Source: a bacterium
Lineage (GTDB): Bacteria > CAIWAD01
DNA: 64,000 nt
Direction: 5' to 3'
NCBI GenBank assembly: GCA_030685015.1
Contig: JAUXWS010000013.1
Span: 10,936-74,935 of the forward strand
The position numbers were made by a program, and so were the translations under genes. Every line of letters begins with the position of its first letter. Within the stretch, counting starts at the first letter, position 1. Shown one piece after another: positions 18,608-28,846 of the stretch. The notes beneath the pieces are model-generated. The model saw only the letters and a program-made list of their open reading frames with translations. It had not been told where the DNA came from and ran no database searches.

Positions 18608-20274
18608 CACGCCGGCCCACCCTCATCCTCGTCCTGCTGGTCGCCCTGGCCACCTTGCCACTTCCGGCCGCGAACCGGGCGCCGGACCGGGACACCTACA
18701 TGCGCCAGGTCCACGACAACCTGGTCCGCTTTGGCGAGGTCTACCGCAACCTGGCCTTCCGCTACGTGGACCAGATCAACCCGGAGGCGGCGATGACGGC
18801 CGCCATCCGCGGCCTGATGGACGAGCTGGACCCCTACTCGGACTACTATCTGGAGGAAGCGGCGCAGGATCTGGACGACATGTCGCGCGGCCAATACGGC
18901 GGCATCGGGATGGAGGTGGGCCTGCGCGGCTCCGACAAGCGCGTCACCGTGATCAGCCCCTTCGAGGGCTCGCCCGCCTGGAAGGCCGGCCTCCTGCCGG
19001 GCGACGAGATCGTCACGGTGGACGGCGCGCCGGTCACGGGCAAGGCCCTGTCCGACGCCGTCCGCCTCATCAAGGGCGAGGTCGGCACCAGCGTCACCCT
19101 CGGCATCCGCCGCGCCGGCGCCAAGGAGGTGCAGGACTACACCCTGACCCGGCAGTTGATCGCCATCCAGGACGTCAAGTTCGCCGAGATGACGGACCCC
19201 GCCACCGGCACGGGCTACATCCGGCTGGCGCGTTTCTCCGGCCAGGCGGGGGAGGATCTGGCGGCCGCCCTCGAGCAGCTCAAGGCCCAGGGCATGCGCC
19301 GCCTGGTGCTGGATCTGCGCGGCAACCCGGGCGGCCTCCTGCGCGAGGCGGCGGCCGTTGCCGAGCTCTTCCTTGAGCAGGGCCAGACCATTGTCGTCAC
19401 CCGTGGGCGCAACCGCGAAGTGATCAAGGAAATCCAGAGCACGCGGGCGCCGGTCTTCCGCGGCGAGATGGCCGTGCTCATCGACGGCGGCAGCGCCAGC
19501 GCCAGCGAGATCGTGGCCGGCAGCCTGCAGGACCACGACCGCGCCGTCATCGTGGGAGAGCAGAGCTTCGGCAAGGGCCTCGTGCAAAGCGTGCTGGACC
19601 TGGACGACGAGGCCAAGGTCAAGTTGACCACCGCCCGCTATTACCTGCCCTCCGGCCGCCTCATCCAGCGCATCGACTACTTCGAGGACAACGAGGTGCT
19701 GGACCACCTGGCCGACTCCACCCTGGCCGACACCCTCTTCCAGACGCTGGGCGGCCGCCAGGTGATCGGCGGGCGCGGCGTCAGCCCGGACGTGGAGGTC
19801 CAGGCGGAGCGCCAGCCCTGGGTCGTGCTGGAGTTGTGGCGGGGCGCCCATTTTGTCAACTATGTCGCAGATCGCACCGCCGCCGGTTACGCCTTCCCGC
19901 CCACCAGCGATGACCGCCTCCTGGACGATTTCCAGGCCTATCTCGACGAGCAGGAGTTCCAGTTCCAGCCGCGGGGCACGGTCCAGCTGGATGAACTGGA
20001 CAAGATCCTGGCGGAGGATGAGGCAGGTGAGGCGGGCCGCCGGGCGCTGGCCGCCTTGCGCGCCGTGATGGCGGATAACCTGGCCCAGCAGTTCAAGGCC
20101 CATGGGGAGGCCATCTCCCGCATGCTGGATCTGGAGCTGGTCAGCCAGCGCGAGGGCCAGACGGCCCGCGCCCGGGAGGCCCTGCGCCACGACGAGGCCT
20201 ACCGGCAGGCCATGGCGCTGCTGGCTTCATCGTCCGGCGAGTATGAGCGCGCCCTGGGCCTGCCGGGCAGATGA
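18604..20274 (+). CDS. ctpA: S41 carboxyl-terminal processing peptidase with PDZ domain
   Basis: A 556-residue periplasmic protease with a signal peptide (about 1-23). An N-terminal helical cap is followed by a PDZ domain (about 100-185, GGIGMEVG...PGDEIVTVDG), then the S41 core. The catalytic dyad can be placed at S299 in GGSASASE and K324 in GEQSFGKG. The 25-residue spacing is as in known CtpA/D1P proteases. The C-terminal region (about 430-556) is helical and longer than in the smallest family members. It joins tmk by ATGA and the HAD gene by ATGA. Likely targets are misfolded or C-terminally tagged envelope proteins, or peptidoglycan enzymes. Confidence 0.9.
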   Translation: MTRRPTLILVLLVALATLPLPAANRAPDRDTYMRQVHDNLVRFGEVYRNLAFRYVDQINPEAAMTAAIRGLMDELDPYSDYYLEEAAQDLDDMSRGQYGGIGMEVGLRGSDKRVTVISPFEGSPAWKAGLLPGDEIVTVDGAPVTGKALSDAVRLIKGEVGTSVTLGIRRAGAKEVQDYTLTRQLIAIQDVKFAEMTDPATGTGYIRLARFSGQAGEDLAAALEQLKAQGMRRLVLDLRGNPGGLLREAAAVAELFLEQGQTIVVTRGRNREVIKEIQSTRAPVFRGEMAVLIDGGSASASEIVAGSLQDHDRAVIVGEQSFGKGLVQSVLDLDDEAKVKLTTARYYLPSGRLIQRIDYFEDNEVLDHLADSTLADTLFQTLGGRQVIGGRGVSPDVEVQAERQPWVVLELWRGAHFVNYVADRTAAGYAFPPTSDDRLLDDFQAYLDEQEFQFQPRGTVQLDELDKILAEDEAGEAGRRALAALRAVMADNLAQQFKAHGEAISRMLDLELVSQREGQTARAREALRHDEAYRQAMALLASSSGEYERALGLPGR

Positions 20275-21056
20275 GGCCGGCGCCTCCCGACGACGACGGC
20301 GGCCCGATCGTCCTCCTGGACTTCGATGGAACGATCACGCGTGATCGCGCCGGGAATCCGATCGTCTTCCTGGACTTCGATGGCACCATCACGGTGGACG
20401 ACACCCTGGTCCTCCTGCTGGATCGCTTCGGCCGGCGGCTGCCCGACGGCCGGGACTGGCGGGCGATCGAATTCGACGACAGCCTGCCCGAGCGGGTGAA
20501 ACTGCAGGCCGAGCTGGACCTGCTCGAGGTCGGGCTGGACGAGGCGCTGGCCTGGCTGGACGGAGCCAGCCGGCTGCGTCCCGGCTTCGCGGATTTCCTG
20601 GCCTGGGCGGGGCGCCACGGCCTGCAGCCCACCGTGCTCAGCGGCGGCCTCCTGCCCATCATCGAGCACGCCCTGGGACCCTTGCGCCGGGAACTGCACG
20701 CCATCCACGCCAACGACCTGCGCCTGGAGTCGGGCCGCTGGCTGGCCCTGCCTCCCGCCACGCCCCGCCTGCGCGGGTTGTGCAACCACTGCAAGACCTG
20801 GCACCTGCGCGAGGCCGCCGCGGCCCGGCGGCCGGTCATCTATATCGGCGACGGCAGCACGGACTTCTGTCCAGCGCGCGAGGCGGACCTCGTCTTCGCC
20901 CGCTCCTCCCTGGCCACACAGATGGAGGGCGAAGGGAGAAGCCATCTCCCCTTCGTTACCTTTGCCGACGTGATCCGGCGGCTGGAAGGGCTGACCCTCC
21001 GTCCGGAATCGTCCGGCCAGGCCCTGGGCCGGGCCAGGGGCCAGTCAGGCCGCTGA
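20271..21056 (+). CDS. HAD-family phosphatase with duplicated motif I
   Basis: A 261-residue phosphatase resembling the MtnX/SerB-like group. HAD motifs are motif I LDFDGTIT, motif II S124 in VLSGG, and motif IV GDGSTD (193-198). Motif I occurs twice, at 16-23 and 34-41, because an 18-codon segment is tandemly duplicated (20304-20357 and 20358 onward). The second copy has normal spacing to the rest of the fold and should be the active one (nucleophile D35, acid D37). The first would be an N-terminal extension. Substrate unknown. Starts in an ATGA overlap with ctpA. Confidence 0.75.
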   Translation: MRPAPPDDDGGPIVLLDFDGTITRDRAGNPIVFLDFDGTITVDDTLVLLLDRFGRRLPDGRDWRAIEFDDSLPERVKLQAELDLLEVGLDEALAWLDGASRLRPGFADFLAWAGRHGLQPTVLSGGLLPIIEHALGPLRRELHAIHANDLRLESGRWLALPPATPRLRGLCNHCKTWHLREAAAARRPVIYIGDGSTDFCPAREADLVFARSSLATQMEGEGRSHLPFVTFADVIRRLEGLTLRPESSGQALGRARGQSGR

Positions 21057-22410: not shown

Positions 22411-23172
22411 ATGAGCGAAGCGACCTGGACCACCGCCATCACCAAGACGGCCGCCGGTGAACTGCGCGTGCGCGGCTACGCCATCACCGACCTGATCGCG
22501 CGGCTCAGCTTCGCGCAGACCGTCTTCCTCATCCTGAAGGGGGAGCTGCCCACGGCGGCGGAGGCCCGCATGATGGAGGGCCTGCTCGTCTCCTCCATCG
22601 ACCACGGCATCACGCCCCCCTCCAACCTGGCGGCGCGCACGGTGCTGAGCGGCGGCAACAGCCTCAACGCCGCCGTGGCGGCGGGCATCCTCACCATCGG
22701 GGACAGCCACGGGGGCGCCATCGAACAATGCGCGCGCATCCTCCAGGAGGCGGTGGCGGCGGGGGAGGACGCTCCGACGCTGGCGGCGCGCTTCAAAGCG
22801 GCGGGCCGGCGCCTCCCCGGCTTCGGGCATCGCATCCACGCCCGCGACCCGCGTTCCAGCGCCCTGCTGGAGCTGGCCGACCAGTGCGGTTTCACCGGTC
22901 CGCACATCCGCCTGGCGACGGCCTTGATGGAGGAGCTGGAGCGCGGCACGGACAAGAAGCTGCCCCTCAACGTGGACGGCGCCATCGCCGCCGTCATCTC
23001 GGAGATGGGCTTCGACTGGCGCCTGGGCAAGGGCTTCTTCATCATCGCCCGCACCCCCGGCCTGGTCGCCCATGTCTTCGAGGAATGGACGACCCAGAAG
23101 CCCATGCGCAGGCTGGGCCCCCTGGGCGGTGAATACGCCGGGCCGGCGGATCGCGAGCTGCCCTCGTCCTGA
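22411..23172 (+). CDS. citryl-CoA lyase / short citrate synthase homologue
   Basis: A 253-residue protein of the citrate synthase fold, much shorter than true citrate synthase (about 430). It matches the stand-alone citryl-CoA lyase type, which splits citryl-CoA to acetyl-CoA and oxaloacetate. The catalytic triad of the superfamily is kept: H65 in SIDHGITPPSN, H140 in PGFGHRIH and D189 in NVDGAIAA. In Hydrogenobacter the partner is citryl-CoA synthetase, working in the reductive TCA cycle. No partner gene is present here, so direction and pathway remain open. A 171-base gap precedes it. Confidence 0.75.
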   Translation: MSEATWTTAITKTAAGELRVRGYAITDLIARLSFAQTVFLILKGELPTAAEARMMEGLLVSSIDHGITPPSNLAARTVLSGGNSLNAAVAAGILTIGDSHGGAIEQCARILQEAVAAGEDAPTLAARFKAAGRRLPGFGHRIHARDPRSSALLELADQCGFTGPHIRLATALMEELERGTDKKLPLNVDGAIAAVISEMGFDWRLGKGFFIIARTPGLVAHVFEEWTTQKPMRRLGPLGGEYAGPADRELPSS

Positions 23173-23251
23173 GGGCCGGACCTCCCTGGGCGGCGGGTCG
23201 ACGGGGAAGGGCGGAGAGCATGGTGGATCAGAGTCGTGGCGAGGTCGGACG

Positions 23252-23869
23252 ATGTTGTTGAGGGCCCTCTTCCGCGGCGGCTTCATCGGCGGCCTGCTCG
23301 CCTTCCTCTGGACCGCCTTCTCCTGGTCCATCCTCGCCTGGCACCGTCCCACCGTCCTCCCCCTGGCCGACGAGGCGGCGGCGGCGGACTTCCTGCGGGT
23401 CCAGGCCCCGCGCTCCGGGGTCTACCTGCTGCCCAACCCGCACCATCCACCCGCCGGGCTCGAGCTTGATTCGTTGGTCGCCCACCTGGACCGCCAGGTG
23501 GCGGCCGCGGCCCAGGGACCGGTCTCCTTTCTCGCCGTGCGGGCCCAGGGCCAGAACCTGGCCCATCCCGCCTTTTTCCTCAACACCCTGCTCATCCATG
23601 TGGCGGGCGCCATCCTGCTGACGCTGCTGGCCTGGCAGTTGCGGGGCGGGAGCTACTGGCGACGCTGGGGCGGTCTCATGCTGGCCGTGGCGGCGGGCGG
23701 GGTGGTCAACCAACTGCCCTACTGGAACTGGTGGCACGCCGGTCCGGCCTGGACCCTGACCAACTTGGCCGACCTGCTGGCCGGCTGGGGCCTGGCCGGG
23801 CTCTTCATCGCCTGGGCGGTCGGACCGGATCGGCGGCGGACGCACAGGCCCGGGGCGCCGACGGCCTGA
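23252..23869 (+). CDS. hypothetical four-helix membrane protein
   Basis: A 205-residue integral membrane protein. A first helix near 8-30 ends FSWSILAWHRPT. An extracytoplasmic loop follows that contains SGVYLLPNPHHPP, then helices near 110-130, 138-155 and 170-190. I recall unnamed proteins with the same 'SW..LPWH' and 'SGVY..P' layout, but no function is established for them. Start at the ATG 23252, since upstream in-frame ATGs belong to the preceding gene. It lies 79 bases behind the citryl-CoA lyase gene and may be co-transcribed. Confidence 0.6.
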   Translation: MLLRALFRGGFIGGLLAFLWTAFSWSILAWHRPTVLPLADEAAAADFLRVQAPRSGVYLLPNPHHPPAGLELDSLVAHLDRQVAAAAQGPVSFLAVRAQGQNLAHPAFFLNTLLIHVAGAILLTLLAWQLRGGSYWRRWGGLMLAVAAGGVVNQLPYWNWWHAGPAWTLTNLADLLAGWGLAGLFIAWAVGPDRRRTHRPGAPTA

Positions 23870-23904: not shown

Positions 23905-25038
23905 TCAGTCGGATTCCAGGCGCCAGCGCAGTCCCAGGCCGGCACGCAGCACCTCGAAATCCTTGACGCGGGAGATGCCGCCCCAGGCCGCCTCGCTGTC
24001 CCGCCACTCGCGCTCCACCACCGGGATGAGGGTGAGGGAGGCGCCAAGGGCGAGGCGTCCGCGCAGGCTGAGCAGGATGCGGCGGTCGTGGCGGCCGTAG
24101 TGGAAGGGATCCTGCAGCTCGCCCAGGCGGCTCTGGTACCAGCGGTCGCGCAGGGTCAGCCCGGCGTCCAGGCCGGCCGCCCGCGTTCCCCAGCGGCCGC
24201 TCCAGCCCAATGAGAGGCTGTACTGGTCCTCCTGGTGGCTGCCGTCGCCGCCTTCGCTGTCCACGCCCAGATTCACCGTGCCCACGCCCTGGCTCCCCGT
24301 GTAGCCCACATTGTGGGTGTCGCTGAAGCGCCAACCCAGCCCGGCGCTGAGGCCGGCCGGCATGCGCCAGCCGAGGTCCAGACCCAGGGACCACGCCTCC
24401 CCGTCATACTCGGTGAACCAGGGATTGTAGGACTCCCGGTCCCAGGCCGCGCTGAGCGAGAGGCCCGGCTGGCGCAGCCAGGGTCCACGATCCGGGCCGC
24501 GGGCCTTGAGCACCAGCTCGATCTGGTCGCTGTCGAAGGTGGCGCCCCGTTCGGCGCCTGTGTCGCGGTCCAGGAAGCGGCGGATGTAGTAGTTGTCCAG
24601 GGTGCGCCAGTTCAGCTCCGTGCCCCAGCCAGGGCGGGGCTGCCAGGCGCCGCTCAGCCGGTGGCTGGCGTAGGTGTTGGCCGGGCTGCCCTCGTACTGT
24701 GTCCACTTGCCGTCCCAGCTCAGGCTGAGACGACCCTGGCCGGGGCGGCCGCCCGCCCATCTCTGCAGGGCGGCGAAGGGCCCCTGGCGGGAGCGCAGGC
24801 GCCACTGGAGAGCGAGGCCCAGGCGGTGGTCGACCCGCAGGGCGCCCGCCCCCTCCACATCCGGCTGGAAGGAGGGGTCCCGTTTCAACCGGCTGCGGTC
24901 GCTGTCCGACAGGCGCAGGATGTTGTCGTCGGCGACCAGGCGCTCCTCAAGGCTGATCGTCCAATCCGGCGCATGCCAGGCGGCCATCGCCGGCAGGGCG
25001 ATCGCCAGCAGGGCGATGAGATGCAGGACGCGCCGCAC
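23905..25038 (-). CDS. predicted outer-membrane beta-barrel protein of the poly-gamma-glutamate operon
   Basis: A 377-residue protein with a signal peptide (about 1-20, ending AMAAW). The remainder is alternating polar and hydrophobic strands rich in Trp, Tyr, Gly and Arg, such as LGLALQWRLRS and AGLGWRFSDTHNVGYTG. Aromatic residues sit at the ends of strands and the last strand is LGLRWRLESD, as in a barrel. No family is recognised. It begins one base after the preceding secreted-protein gene at the tail of pgsBCW. A role as outer-membrane exit for the polymer is therefore inferred, not shown. Confidence 0.6.
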   Translation of the reverse strand: MRRVLHLIALLAIALPAMAAWHAPDWTISLEERLVADDNILRLSDSDRSRLKRDPSFQPDVEGAGALRVDHRLGLALQWRLRSRQGPFAALQRWAGGRPGQGRLSLSWDGKWTQYEGSPANTYASHRLSGAWQPRPGWGTELNWRTLDNYYIRRFLDRDTGAERGATFDSDQIELVLKARGPDRGPWLRQPGLSLSAAWDRESYNPWFTEYDGEAWSLGLDLGWRMPAGLSAGLGWRFSDTHNVGYTGSQGVGTVNLGVDSEGGDGSHQEDQYSLSLGWSGRWGTRAAGLDAGLTLRDRWYQSRLGELQDPFHYGRHDRRILLSLRGRLALGASLTLIPVVEREWRDSEAAWGGISRVKDFEVLRAGLGLRWRLESD

Positions 25039-25039
25039 C

Positions 25040-26008
25040 TCAGCTCCCGCTGTGGCGCAGGGCTTCGCGGGGCATGAGGAAGCGCAGGTTCACCTCGCGC
25101 CCGCTGTCCTGGAACTTCACGGCATACTGGTGGCGGCCGGCCGGCACCTCGATGTAGATGACCTCGCCGCGGGCCGGCATGGTGTTGTCCTTGCCCACGT
25201 AGGTGGCCGCGGTGCTGCGCCGTCCGCGCAGGACCCAGGTGTTCTTCAGGAGGCCGTCCTCATGAACTTTGAGCTGGTATTTCTGCTGGCCCGTCATCGT
25301 GGTGTTCCAGTCCAGCCGGCTGATCACCTTGACGACGGTGGGACCCGTCACATCCAGCTGCAACTCGGAGCCGGAGGCCAGCACCTGGTAGGTGGCGCGC
25401 TTGTCCTGGACGGCGATGTTGCGCGTGGCACCGCCGCCCCGGGGCAGCAGGTCCACCGTGCCGCCCTTGGGCATGGGCTGCAGGGCCTTGGATTGCAACC
25501 GGAGGAACACGTTCTCCGAGAGCAGGCCCTCCGTCTGGAAACTGATGTCGTGCGTGCCGTAGGGGATGCGGATCTCCTCGGTGATCGAGGCGGAAAGACG
25601 CGGCCACTTGGCGGGGGTGGCGAACTCGGGCGCCTCCTTGGGCGGTTGCAGGTGGACCGTGCGGGAGCGGACCATGGGCAGGCGCAGGGTGCCGCCCGGT
25701 TGGCCGTCCAGATTCCAGGAGATCAGGTTCTCCTTGCCTTTGAGCTTGCTGCGCCAGGGGGCGCGTGCCACCACGCGGAGCACGGCCGGCCCGTTGACGG
25801 AGGCCTTCATCGCGCCGCCCTTGTCCAGTTGCCAGTAGACCCGCGCCTTGCCGTCCACATCCACCATGGCGCGCTTGGCGCCCTTCACGGTGCGGACGTT
25901 GACCCAGGCCGCGCCGGCCATCCCCGCCACCAGCAGCAGCGCCAGCAGCGCCCAGGGCAGGCGGGCGGCCAGCCGCCGTCCCGCTCCGGCACCCGATCGG
26001 TTGATCAT
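25040..26008 (-). CDS. secreted beta-rich protein of the poly-gamma-glutamate operon
   Basis: A 322-residue protein with an N-terminal signal or anchor helix (about 15-35, LPWALLALLLVAGMAGAA). The rest is a beta-rich, periplasmic-looking chain. Two stretches share a pattern, 'V.GPAVLRVVARAPW....KGKENLISWNLDG' and 'VTGPTVVKVISRLDWN....GQQKYQLKVHEDG', which suggests an internal duplication of a beta-sandwich unit (about 65-105 and 210-250). I do not recognise a named family. Position between pgsW and the barrel gene suggests an adaptor between inner and outer membranes. Confidence 0.6.
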   Translation of the reverse strand: MINRSGAGAGRRLAARLPWALLALLLVAGMAGAAWVNVRTVKGAKRAMVDVDGKARVYWQLDKGGAMKASVNGPAVLRVVARAPWRSKLKGKENLISWNLDGQPGGTLRLPMVRSRTVHLQPPKEAPEFATPAKWPRLSASITEEIRIPYGTHDISFQTEGLLSENVFLRLQSKALQPMPKGGTVDLLPRGGGATRNIAVQDKRATYQVLASGSELQLDVTGPTVVKVISRLDWNTTMTGQQKYQLKVHEDGLLKNTWVLRGRRSTAATYVGKDNTMPARGEVIYIEVPAGRHQYAVKFQDSGREVNLRFLMPREALRHSGS

Positions 26009-26101
26009 GTCTCCTCCTTCGTGCTCGCGCCCGCCCCACGCCTGGTCCGGACATGTCCTTCATGGCCGGCCCGTCTTCATCGGCCGGGGCGGCCCTGGTC
26101 A

Positions 26102-27238
26102 TCAGATGTGTTCGTCGGGTCCGGCCGGCATCTCCCCCAGACGCTGCATGCGCAGATCGAAGCGGATCACCAGGAGCACCATCACCGCCATGATCGCCAC
26201 GGCCAGACCCACCACGCGCAGGTCATAGCGCTCCTCGGCGAACATGCTGCCCTCGCCGGGAAGGGGCACGTGCCCGGGCCGCCAGGGAATGCCGTGCTTC
26301 TTCAGCATGGCGGCGAACTTCGACGGCACGTACTTGAAGTTGATGATCGAGACGCCGTTGTCCGAGAAGTGGTGCACCACGCCCTTGGCCGGATAACTGT
26401 CGTCCTGCAGATGTCGCGTGTAACCCAGCGGGATGACGTGCGCGTTGTCCGGGTGGCCCAGGCTGACCACGCCGCCGCCGATGTTGATGTAGGCCCGGTA
26501 GCCGCGCAGGGACTCCCGCACCGCCTCCCGGTAGACCCGGATGCGTCCGTCCACCGCCTGCTCAAGCGATTCCGGATTGAGATAGCCCACGCCGTTGCGC
26601 TCGATGGCGGCCCGCACCAGGGCGCGCCCCTCGGGCGAAAGGCTGCGGCCGCGGTCGTCGGCGCCGCCGATGGAGGCGGCCACGCTGCGGAAGGTGATTT
26701 GTCCGTTGTCGACCAGCACCTTCTCCATGTCCAGCCAGGTGAAGTCGGGGTCATTGGCGCCGTACCAGGAGCTGGAGACGCTGGTGATGATGACCGGTTC
26801 CAGCTCCAACACGCGGCAGGCGGCATAGGCGGCCAGGTTGAGCCCGGGGAAGGAGCCGGTCACCCCCAGGGCCACCTTGTCGCCGCGCTCGAGGCCCGCC
26901 TCCTTGAAGATCTGGACCATCATGGCGGCGGTGTTGGGATTGGTGGTGGCCAATTTGGCCTGGTGGTTGCCGTCCGTGGAGGTGATGGGCGTGTGCTTCT
27001 GGCCGATGAGCAGCGTGCGGTCCGGGTCGTTGACCTCGTCCACGAAGGCGGCGGCGGGGGCCTTGGCGTCCCGCAGGATGCCAATCCAGCTCTCCATCAG
27101 GCGGGCGGCGGCCAGTTTCTCCTCGTGATGGGGCCGCTTGACGGGGACACGGCTGCGCTCGGCCCAGTTGTAGAGCCCGTAGGCCATCAAGGCCAGGACG
27201 ACCAGGGTCCAGATCGACTTGAGACTGGGCTTAAACAT
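26102..27238 (-). CDS. pgsW: poly-gamma-glutamate system protein PgsW
   Basis: A 378-residue membrane-anchored protein with helices near residues 10-26 and 350-368 enclosing a large extracytoplasmic domain. It matches my memory of the poly-gamma-glutamate system protein found in Gram-negative pgs loci in place of the PgsA of Bacillus. Conserved-looking blocks are VALGVTGSFPGLNLAAY, SSSWYGANDPDFTWLDME and YINIGGGVVSLG. It overlaps pgsC by eight bases. Expected to work with PgsB and PgsC in synthesis or export of the polymer. Its biochemical role is not established. Confidence 0.82.
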   Translation of the reverse strand: MFKPSLKSIWTLVVLALMAYGLYNWAERSRVPVKRPHHEEKLAAARLMESWIGILRDAKAPAAAFVDEVNDPDRTLLIGQKHTPITSTDGNHQAKLATTNPNTAAMMVQIFKEAGLERGDKVALGVTGSFPGLNLAAYAACRVLELEPVIITSVSSSWYGANDPDFTWLDMEKVLVDNGQITFRSVAASIGGADDRGRSLSPEGRALVRAAIERNGVGYLNPESLEQAVDGRIRVYREAVRESLRGYRAYINIGGGVVSLGHPDNAHVIPLGYTRHLQDDSYPAKGVVHHFSDNGVSIINFKYVPSKFAAMLKKHGIPWRPGHVPLPGEGSMFAEERYDLRVVGLAVAIMAVMVLLVIRFDLRMQRLGEMPAGPDEHI

Positions 27239-27683
27239 GGAAGATTTCCCCCCCCGTCACGAGCATGAGCAGCAGCCGCACGCAGGAGGCCACCAGCAGC
27301 AGGCAGAGCAGGGTCTTGACCACGCCCTGCTTGTCCATCCAGTTGGAGATGAGGCCGGGGATGATGAAGCCCACCGCCTGCATCTGCAAATCCACGCCAA
27401 AAAGGTCGTAGAAGGTGGACTGCCGGGAGAAGTAGCCCAGCACGAAACCGATGAGGATGGAGAGGACGAGGCGGCGCCGGCCGTAGATGAACATCACCAG
27501 GGAGAGGCCCCGGATGATGCCGAAGGTGGCGAAGCTGACAAGGAAGGTGCCCAACAGGCGCAGGGGATCGTGCATCTGCAGGGCCACGTAGCCGGGCACG
27601 ACGATGCCGCCGGCCGAGACGCCGATCACCTCCTGGAAGATCATGCTGAGGATCACTCCCAGGCCGACGCTGATTTCGATCAT
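27231..27683 (-). CDS. pgsC: poly-gamma-glutamate biosynthesis protein PgsC/CapC
   Basis: A 150-residue integral membrane protein with about five helices. It opens with the family-typical GLGVILSMIFQEVIGVSAGGIVVPGYVAL block (residues 7-35). PgsC forms the membrane synthase with PgsB. The start overlaps the pgsB stop (ATGA) and the end overlaps pgsW by eight bases, so stoichiometry is probably set by translational coupling. Length equals that of Bacillus PgsC. Confidence 0.92.
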   Translation of the reverse strand: MIEISVGLGVILSMIFQEVIGVSAGGIVVPGYVALQMHDPLRLLGTFLVSFATFGIIRGLSLVMFIYGRRRLVLSILIGFVLGYFSRQSTFYDLFGVDLQMQAVGFIIPGLISNWMDKQGVVKTLLCLLLVASCVRLLLMLVTGGEIFHV

Positions 27684-28846
27684 GCCGCACTCCTGTCGCG
27701 GAAGTAATGGGCCACCTCATGACCGCCGCCGTGGACGTTGCCGATCCCCATCACCGTCATGACGGGGAAGGGCAGGTTGATCACGGTGTTGAAGGTCAGC
27801 TCCGGATGGACCGTCCCCAGATTGACCACCTTCTCCTGGGGCAGGCCCATGCGGTAGCAGACGCCCAGCAGCTTGTCCGTCACCTCGCCGATGAGGATGA
27901 GGCGCTCCCAGGCCGTGTCCTGGTGCACCATCTCCACCAGCTGCTCGCTGCGCTCGAAGCGGTCCTTGCGGGTGTTGAGGATGAAGACGGTGGCGCCGGG
28001 GTTGTCCTGCACGCCCGTCACGCGCTGCCAGATGGCCAGCGTGCTCTCGGGGTCGTTGGCGGCCAGCGCGTTGACGAAGGTGACGTGGCGTCCCTCGTGC
28101 TCCAGGCAGTACTTCTTGAGGGCGCCGCAGTCCGGCGCCGCGCGGTACATGCCCTCCAGCGCCACCTCCCGCCCGATCCCGACCTGGGCGGCGACAGCCA
28201 GGGCCAGGGCCACGTTCTCCTTGTGCTCGATGTAACTGAAGGGGCGCATGTCCTCGTCGCTCACGTCGTGGTCGACCACCTCGTGGAGGACGGTGCCGCG
28301 CTGGGCGGCCTCCCGCTTCATCAGGGCGAAGAGCTTGTGCTCGCAGGTGAAGGCCACCTTGCCCACGGGCAGCGTGTTGCAGAGGCTGCGCGCCACGTTC
28401 TCCACGGTGGGGCCCATCTCCCGCAGGTGGTCGGGCCGGGCGTTGGTGATGACCCCGATGGTGGAGCGGACCATGCGGTGCTCGGCGATCCACTGGTACT
28501 CCGGCTGGACGGCCATGCATTCGATGACCAGGGCGCGGGGCCCACGACGGGCGGCATAGGCGACGACGCGGGTCTGCTCGATGATGTTGGCCCCGCGCGG
28601 CCGGACGATGGGAATCTCGGAGCCGTCCTCAAGGATGACCTGCGGCGCGCTGCCCGTGGTCTTGGCGATGGTGGCCAGGCCCCCCGCCCGCAGGGCGCCG
28701 GCGACCAACCGCGTGACGCTCGACTTGCCGCGGGTTCCGTTGACGTGGATGCGAATGGGAATGGAGCGGAGGTGCCGCTGATGCCGCCTATACTCGAAAA
28801 TGCCCAATGCGATGATCAACAAAAGCAGCAAAGCGATGATGGTCAT
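27680..28846 (-). CDS. pgsB: poly-gamma-glutamate synthase PgsB/CapB
   Basis: A 388-residue ATP-dependent amide ligase related to Mur ligases, with an N-terminal membrane helix (about 2-18). The P-loop HVNGTRGKSSV (34-44) is typical of CapB. ITNARPDHLREMGPT and FILNTRKDRFERS are other conserved blocks. It polymerises glutamate through gamma-carboxyl linkages. The ATG at 28846 is chosen because the hydrophobic N-terminus starts there, and the longer in-frame extension is low-complexity. First gene of a five-gene operon. Confidence 0.92.
   Translation of the reverse strand: MTIIALLLLLIIALGIFEYRRHQRHLRSIPIRIHVNGTRGKSSVTRLVAGALRAGGLATIAKTTGSAPQVILEDGSEIPIVRPRGANIIEQTRVVAYAARRGPRALVIECMAVQPEYQWIAEHRMVRSTIGVITNARPDHLREMGPTVENVARSLCNTLPVGKVAFTCEHKLFALMKREAAQRGTVLHEVVDHDVSDEDMRPFSYIEHKENVALALAVAAQVGIGREVALEGMYRAAPDCGALKKYCLEHEGRHVTFVNALAANDPESTLAIWQRVTGVQDNPGATVFILNTRKDRFERSEQLVEMVHQDTAWERLILIGEVTDKLLGVCYRMGLPQEKVVNLGTVHPELTFNTVINLPFPVMTVMGIGNVHGGGHEVAHYFRDRSAA

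What the first reader, a model, noticed from the sequence alone, without database searches (positions are those of the whole stretch)
23905..28846. Poly-gamma-glutamate operon extended by a predicted outer-membrane barrel and a secreted beta-protein
pgsB-pgsC-pgsW are followed by a signal-peptide beta-rich protein and, one base later, a protein that looks like an outer-membrane barrel. Gram-positive systems do not need an outer-membrane exit, and how Gram-negative bacteria export this polymer is poorly described. The two extra genes are good candidates for the missing periplasmic adaptor and outer-membrane channel.
Basis: partly seen in the sequence, partly recalled or inferred. Interest (0 to 1): 0.66.

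Follow-up and report, generated by a model that had tools for sequence, protein, structure and literature searches.

The report
Polyglutamate operon with outer-membrane exit
Two genes without any family name sit at the end of a bacterial polyglutamate operon; they are predicted to make a periplasmic adaptor and a 14-stranded outer-membrane pore, and the same five-gene order recurs in about a dozen two-membrane phyla, which makes them the best candidates so far for how such bacteria push this polymer out of the cell.

Summary
On the minus strand lie pgsB, pgsC and pgsW (all above NCBIfam cut-offs), then a 322-aa signal-peptide protein and, one base later, a 377-aa protein. Neither of the last two matches a Pfam or NCBIfam family above cut-off. 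AlphaFold2 with alignments of 71-77 homologues gives confident models. The 377-aa protein is a signal peptide plus a 14-strand outer-membrane barrel (pLDDT 93.9, pTM 0.88; best solved relatives CymA and OmpG). The 322-aa protein is two duplicated jelly-roll domains (pLDDT 92.6) resembling carbohydrate-binding modules and cellulose-export protein BcsB. In 56 named loci with pgsBCW and enough downstream sequence, 56 carry the first gene and 55 both. In 386 sampled genomes the barrel occurs in 27 of 41 with PgsW and 1 of 345 without. Natural fusions join the periplasmic domain to PgsW (three loci) and to the barrel (nine). I conclude that this is a dedicated trans-envelope export line for poly-gamma-glutamate in diderm bacteria, architecturally like Bcs cellulose export. 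Structure class and pathway membership are strongly supported; actual polymer passage is inferred. Against: 12 of 41 PgsW genomes, all with Omp85, lack both genes, so the pair is not universal.

The parts
27680..28846 (-). pgsB, poly-gamma-glutamate synthase (Mur-ligase-like amide ligase, GTRGKSS P-loop), 388 aa
   Evidence: TIGR04012 423 bits, E 7e-127; Pfam Mur_ligase_M
27231..27683 (-). pgsC, integral inner-membrane subunit, 150 aa; overlaps pgsB by 4 bases
   Evidence: TIGR04011 119 bits, PF14102 111 bits
26102..27238 (-). pgsW, membrane-anchored 'poly-gamma-glutamate system protein', 378 aa: N-terminal hydrophobic segment, large domain, C-terminal TM at 340-358; overlaps pgsC by 8 bases
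   Evidence: TIGR04332 283 bits; TM scan
26012..26019 (-). ribosome-binding site AAGGAGGA before the 322-aa gene
   Evidence: read directly from sequence
25040..26008 (-). 322-aa secreted/periplasmic protein, no Pfam/NCBIfam family: signal segment plus two duplicated jelly-roll domains
   Evidence: AF2 pLDDT 92.6, pTM 0.80; halves homologous, hhalign prob 99.9, E 1.7e-33; CBM35/51/36 folds Z about 9-10 and BcsB Z 8.9
25478..25915 (-). jelly-roll domain 1 of the 322-aa protein (residues 32-177)
25061..25477 (-). jelly-roll domain 2 of the 322-aa protein (residues 178-316); best match to BcsB (5ej1_B)
23905..25038 (-). 377-aa outer-membrane beta-barrel protein, GTG start, last gene of the operon
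   Evidence: AF2 pLDDT 93.9, pTM 0.88, 14 strands; CymA Z 23.9 over 285 residues, OmpG Z 21
24979..25038 (-). signal peptide of the barrel protein (residues 1-20, ...ALPAMA|A)
   Evidence: hydrophobic segment, helix 2-19
23914..24966 (-). 14-strand barrel (residues 25-375): strands alternate apolar-out/polar-in; conserved residues cluster in the predicted extracellular loops

Best explanation
The locus is a five-gene poly-gamma-glutamate synthesis-and-export operon of a diderm bacterium. PgsB and PgsC polymerise glutamate at the inner membrane. PgsW is a further inner-membrane component, possibly in place of the PgsA/CapA of Bacillus, which is not in this operon. The 322-aa protein is a periplasmic guide of two jelly-roll domains that links the inner-membrane complex to the outer membrane. 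The 377-aa protein is a dedicated 14-strand outer-membrane channel through which the polyanion leaves the cell. It works like Bcs cellulose export (BcsB periplasmic jelly-roll domains plus the BcsC barrel), but the two new proteins belong to no named family. Shown: gene content and order, structural class (predicted), conservation, co-occurrence, domain fusions. Inferred: that the polymer is gamma-glutamate, that the 322-aa protein touches it, and that it crosses the barrel.
For: Barrel: AF2 pLDDT 93.9, pTM 0.88, signal helix then 14 strands; top structural matches outer-membrane channels, CymA Z 23.9, rmsd 3.4, 285 aligned. Every strand alternates polar-in/apolar-out, and the inferred lumen side carries more K+R (21.0) than D+E (15.4) per protein across 77 homologues, as a polyanion pore might. 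Homologues that match a named family match mainly outer-membrane-barrel models, including polysaccharide-export protein EpsL in 7 of 77. Adaptor: AF2 pLDDT 92.6, tandem duplication, CBM and BcsB folds. Linkage: same order pgsB-C-W-adaptor-barrel in 55 of 56 named loci, about a dozen phyla. In 386 genomes, barrel vs PgsW 27/41 vs 1/345 (Fisher 4e-30), adaptor vs PgsW 25/41 vs 3/345 (2e-25), adaptor vs barrel 4e-30. Fusions: PgsW-adaptor in 3 loci, with a hydrophobic segment flagged before the adaptor domain in one of them; adaptor domain N-terminal to barrel in 9 loci. One locus lacking a barrel homologue has a different predicted barrel protein (DUF2490-like) in the same position.
Against: 12 of 41 sampled PgsW genomes have neither gene although all have Omp85/BamA, so diderm PgsBCW can exist without this pair or uses something else. 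No polymer, transport or interaction data. Predicted extracellular loops are more conserved than strands (2.11 vs 1.51 bits), which would also suit an enzyme or a surface anchor; no control family was run. Jelly-roll Z scores of 8-10 are common for such folds. The 80 named loci were the 80 closest to this PgsW, so 55/56 overstates the general rate; the less biased sample gives 17/29.
Confidence: 0.74

Rival explanations
1. The barrel and adaptor do not translocate the polymer but hold or modify it at the surface: a Wzi-like capsule anchor, or a barrel enzyme (hydrolase or transpeptidase) acting on the polymer at the outer membrane.
For: The most conserved residues (N39, E210, D212, D265, D310, H313, R316, K359) lie in predicted extracellular loops, which are more conserved than the strands; 12 diderm PgsW genomes manage without the pair.
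Against: The adaptor-barrel and PgsW-adaptor fusions argue for a line running from the inner to the outer membrane, which an anchor does not need; the closest folds are channels. Inward-folded conserved loops could be a gate.
Confidence: 0.17
2. The five genes make and export some other gamma-linked or amide polymer, or a short oligomer, rather than poly-gamma-glutamate; the envelope roles are as proposed but the cargo differs. (Not exclusive with the best explanation's mechanism.)
For: No product is known for any PgsW-type operon in the papers searched; the operon lacks PgsA.
Against: PgsB passes an equivalog model by 200 bits and PgsC passes its own.
Confidence: 0.2
3. The two genes are ordinary envelope proteins that merely travel with pgsBCW in one lineage.
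For: Both lack annotation, and the window's phylum is represented by only five genomes.
Against: Order is kept across about a dozen phyla at 20-25% identity, with strong co-occurrence and two kinds of fusion.
Confidence: 0.03

Closest known systems
Bcs cellulose secretion (BcsA-BcsB-BcsC)
   Same: Inner-membrane synthase, periplasmic protein with two jelly-roll (carbohydrate-binding-like) repeats, then an outer-membrane barrel; PMC11379886 describes the BcsB repeats and CBD-1 contacting BcsC. Domain 2 of the 322-aa protein matches BcsB 5ej1_B at Z 8.9.
   Different: Presumed cargo is a polyamide made by a Mur-type ligase; no flavodoxin-like domains or TPRs; barrel has 14, not 16, strands; no BcsB Pfam match.
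PgsBCA(E) / CapBCA(D,E) of Bacillus, and PgsBCA of Fusobacterium nucleatum
   Same: PgsB and PgsC are members by curated models. F. nucleatum is reported as the first Gram-negative shown to make polyglutamate (reference listed in PMC3815933).
   Different: PgsW rather than PgsA in the operon; adaptor and barrel added. The CapsuleFinder PGA model (PMC5542703) has no outer-membrane component.
EpsL / EpsX-type barrels with OPX proteins (composite polysaccharide translocon)
   Same: A separate barrel plus a periplasmic partner exports polymer across the outer membrane (PMC12004946); 7 of 77 barrel homologues weakly match EpsL TIGR03014.
   Different: Partner is a tandem jelly-roll, not an OPX protein; the window barrel itself does not match EpsL.
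CymA (cyclodextrin channel) and OmpG
   Same: Outer-membrane channels of closely matching barrel fold, Z 24 and 21.
   Different: About 8-11% identity and no export role; shared fold only.

Membership tests
PgsB-PgsC poly-gamma-glutamate synthase | PgsB above TIGR04012 and PgsC above TIGR04011 cut-offs, adjacent | tested here: met
   423 and 119 bits; genes overlap by 4 bases
PgsB-PgsC poly-gamma-glutamate synthase | product is poly-gamma-glutamate | not testable with these tools
   needs chemistry
Bacillus-type PgsBCA(E) | PgsA/CapA (PF09587) gene in the operon | tested here: not met
   the only PF09587 matches lie on another contig, C28; none of the five operon proteins matches it
Outer-membrane beta-barrel channel | signal peptide plus barrel with an even strand number, both ends periplasmic, apolar exterior | tested here: met
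   14 strands, alternation in all strands; prediction, not experiment
Outer-membrane beta-barrel channel | conducts a polymer | not testable with these tools
   needs transport or conductance assay
EpsL (TIGR03014) exopolysaccharide outer-membrane protein | score above curated cut-off | tested here: inconclusive
   window protein no match at E 1; 7 of 77 homologues match weakly, best E 1.6e-6
OPX / Wza polysaccharide export protein | Poly_export domain in the periplasmic partner | tested here: not met
   no such Pfam match in the 322-aa protein, nor among the families listed for its 71 aligned members
BcsB | BcsB sequence family (CBD plus flavodoxin-like repeats) | tested here: not met
   no Pfam/NCBIfam match and no flavodoxin-like domain in the all-beta model; fold resemblance of the jelly-roll only
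PgsW (TIGR04332) | above cut-off, with membrane segments flanking one domain | tested here: met
   283 bits; C-terminal TM scores clearly, the N-terminal hydrophobic segment is below threshold in the window protein but scored in the fusion homologues

The most novel reading that the evidence does not exclude
PgsBCW plus the jelly-roll adaptor and the 14-strand barrel form a previously undescribed trans-envelope secretion machine for an anionic polyamide, widespread in Bacteroidota, Cloacimonadota, Calditrichota, Zixibacteria, Krumholzibacteriota, Eisenbacteria and related phyla, evolved in parallel to the polysaccharide exporters, with conserved inward-folding extracellular loops acting as a gate.
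Probability: 0.62. Interest if true: 0.8.

Novelty: new variant of a known kind. Interest (0 to 1): 0.68.

Why it matters
Poly-gamma-glutamate capsule genes have been detected in most bacterial phyla (PMC5542703), but the published detection model contains no outer-membrane part, so how diderms export this polymer is open. This finding names two concrete, unannotated protein families with predicted structures, a fixed gene order and natural fusions, so that the question can be tested by two gene deletions. It also gives markers for finding Gram-negative polyglutamate producers, nearly all of them uncultured, and suggests that the logic of cellulose export (synthase, periplasmic jelly-roll guide, outer-membrane barrel) arose for a polyamide too.

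Tried and rejected
Sequence searches of both families against the PDB gave nothing meaningful; PgsW likewise. I considered that genomes lacking the pair might be monoderm; rejected, because all 44 genomes checked have Omp85. I considered that the pair in those genomes is merely divergent; a filter-off search of loci lacking both genes with the deep profiles found nothing convincing. OPX/Wza and BcsB membership were rejected on sequence. A first set of iterated profiles was contaminated by adaptor-barrel fusions and was rebuilt from clean seeds. A 24-row PgsW alignment was too diverse for the genome scan, so a 12-row one was used. The promoter and terminator scan was uninformative: 1 promoter-like site inside pgsC and 1 terminator-like site upstream of pgsB, neither usefully above chance.
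Full report
WHAT IS THERE. The five ORFs lie on the minus strand, tightly packed. PgsB, PgsC and PgsW pass their NCBIfam cut-offs. The 322-aa and 377-aa proteins match no Pfam or NCBIfam family above cut-off. The longest ORF immediately downstream lies on the opposite strand (23072-23869), so the barrel gene appears to end the operon.

STRUCTURE OF THE LAST PROTEIN. With 77 homologues aligned, AlphaFold2 gives pLDDT 93.9 and pTM 0.88: a signal helix (2-19), then 14 strands between residues 25 and 375. Taking the usual outer-membrane orientation, periplasmic turns 2-6 are short (2-8 residues) while three outer loops are long. Two departures are periplasmic turn 1 (20 residues, mostly not alignable across the family) and several short outer loops. 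Foldseek and VIA-align return outer-membrane proteins, led by CymA (Z 23.9, rmsd 3.4, 285 aligned) and OmpG (Z 21). Predicted extracellular loops are more conserved (2.11 bits) than strands (1.51) or periplasmic turns (1.24); no control family was measured. Homologues that match a Pfam or NCBIfam model match mainly outer-membrane families (OMP_b-brl 11, EpsL 7, BBP2_2 4, MtrB_PioB 3 of 77).

STRUCTURE OF THE 322-AA PROTEIN. AlphaFold2 with 71 sequences gives pLDDT 92.6: a signal helix and two jelly-roll domains. The two halves are homologous (hhalign probability 99.9, E 1.7e-33). Solved matches are carbohydrate-binding modules (CBM35, CBM51, CBM36; Z about 9-10) and the periplasmic BcsB of cellulose synthase (5ej1_B, Z 8.9, rmsd 3.2, 109 residues). 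Z values of this size are not rare for jelly-rolls, so the BcsB resemblance is a lead for how it works, not a family membership.

CONSERVATION. In the first 60 genomes searched, hits to both proteins fall next to each other in other phyla. A genome-contig scan with PgsW found 335 relatives and kept the 80 closest. Of 56 with pgsB, pgsC and at least 2.6 kb downstream, 56 have the adaptor and 55 both, across records labelled Bacteroidota, Cloacimonadota, Calditrichota, KSB1, Zixibacteria, Latescibacterota, Krumholzibacteriota, Eisenbacteria, Neomarinimicrobiota, Ignavibacteria, Chlorobi and Electryonea (some MAG labels look wrong). The 56th has a DUF2490-like predicted barrel in the same slot. 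Because the 80 are the closest, the 386-genome sample is the fairer one. There, of 29 loci with pgsBC beside PgsW and enough flank, 19 have the adaptor and 17 both. Genome-wide, barrel against PgsW is 27/41 against 1/345, adaptor against PgsW 25/41 against 3/345, and adaptor against barrel 24 shared of 28 each (Fisher 4e-30, 2e-25, 4e-30; for the barrel only genomes with a strong match, E 1e-19 or better, were counted, ten genomes with weak matches being set aside). The genomes are related, so these P values are not strictly independent.

FUSIONS. In L180, L205 and L210 PgsW and the adaptor are one ORF (669-685 aa); in L210 a hydrophobic segment between PgsW's last TM and the adaptor domain would return it to the periplasm. 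Fusions in both directions tie the adaptor physically to the inner-membrane component and to the barrel.

EXCEPTIONS. Twelve of 41 PgsW genomes have neither gene, and all of them have Omp85, so they are probably diderm and must export another way or keep the polymer inside. In G007, G294 and G155 adaptor and barrel exist but lie away from pgsBCW. The window's genome also has a CapA-domain (PF09587) protein elsewhere, on contig C28.

MECHANISM. Polymerisation by PgsB-PgsC at the inner membrane, handover through PgsW to the jelly-roll adaptor, exit through the barrel. Shown: content, order, predicted structural class, conservation and fusions. Inferred: cargo identity, contact and passage. The main rival is a surface anchor or barrel enzyme, suggested by the conserved loop residues.

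LITERATURE. 'PgsW' was seen in no relevant microbiology paper of the open library (20 of 24 hits listed), and no paper found describes an outer-membrane exit for polyglutamate. The capsule survey PMC5542703 defines PGA systems by CapB and CapC, with CapA and CapE accessory, and lists no outer-membrane part, while stating that diderms need an extra protein for the outer membrane. Most subscription journals were not searchable, so earlier description cannot be excluded.

Noticed in passing
window 20271-20393 (+): A HAD-type phosphatase ORF (261 aa) begins with a tandem duplication: two 36-base copies, 92% identical, 54 bases apart start to start, each encoding the DFDGT motif.
   Followed up: partly
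G000:C73 (L029 12726-14606) and L030-L032, L121, L127, L131: A second, shorter PgsW paralogue without pgsB or pgsC nearby occurs in the window's genome and several others; its role is unknown.
   Followed up: no
L136 7873-9571: In G324 PgsC and the N-terminal part of PgsW share one ORF, and the PgsW match carries an in-frame TAG.
   Followed up: no
L177 9011-9844 (+): A DUF2490-like predicted barrel stands where the barrel homologue is missing, suggesting replacement by an analogous pore.
   Followed up: partly
L096 7342-8466, L097 7798-9081: Distant adaptor-like domains occur in two genomes without PgsW (G018, G309), so the domain may serve other envelope systems.
   Followed up: no
L112 8655-12369: In G007 a 271-aa gene lies between pgsB and pgsC, and the adaptor and barrel genes are elsewhere in the genome.
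   Followed up: no
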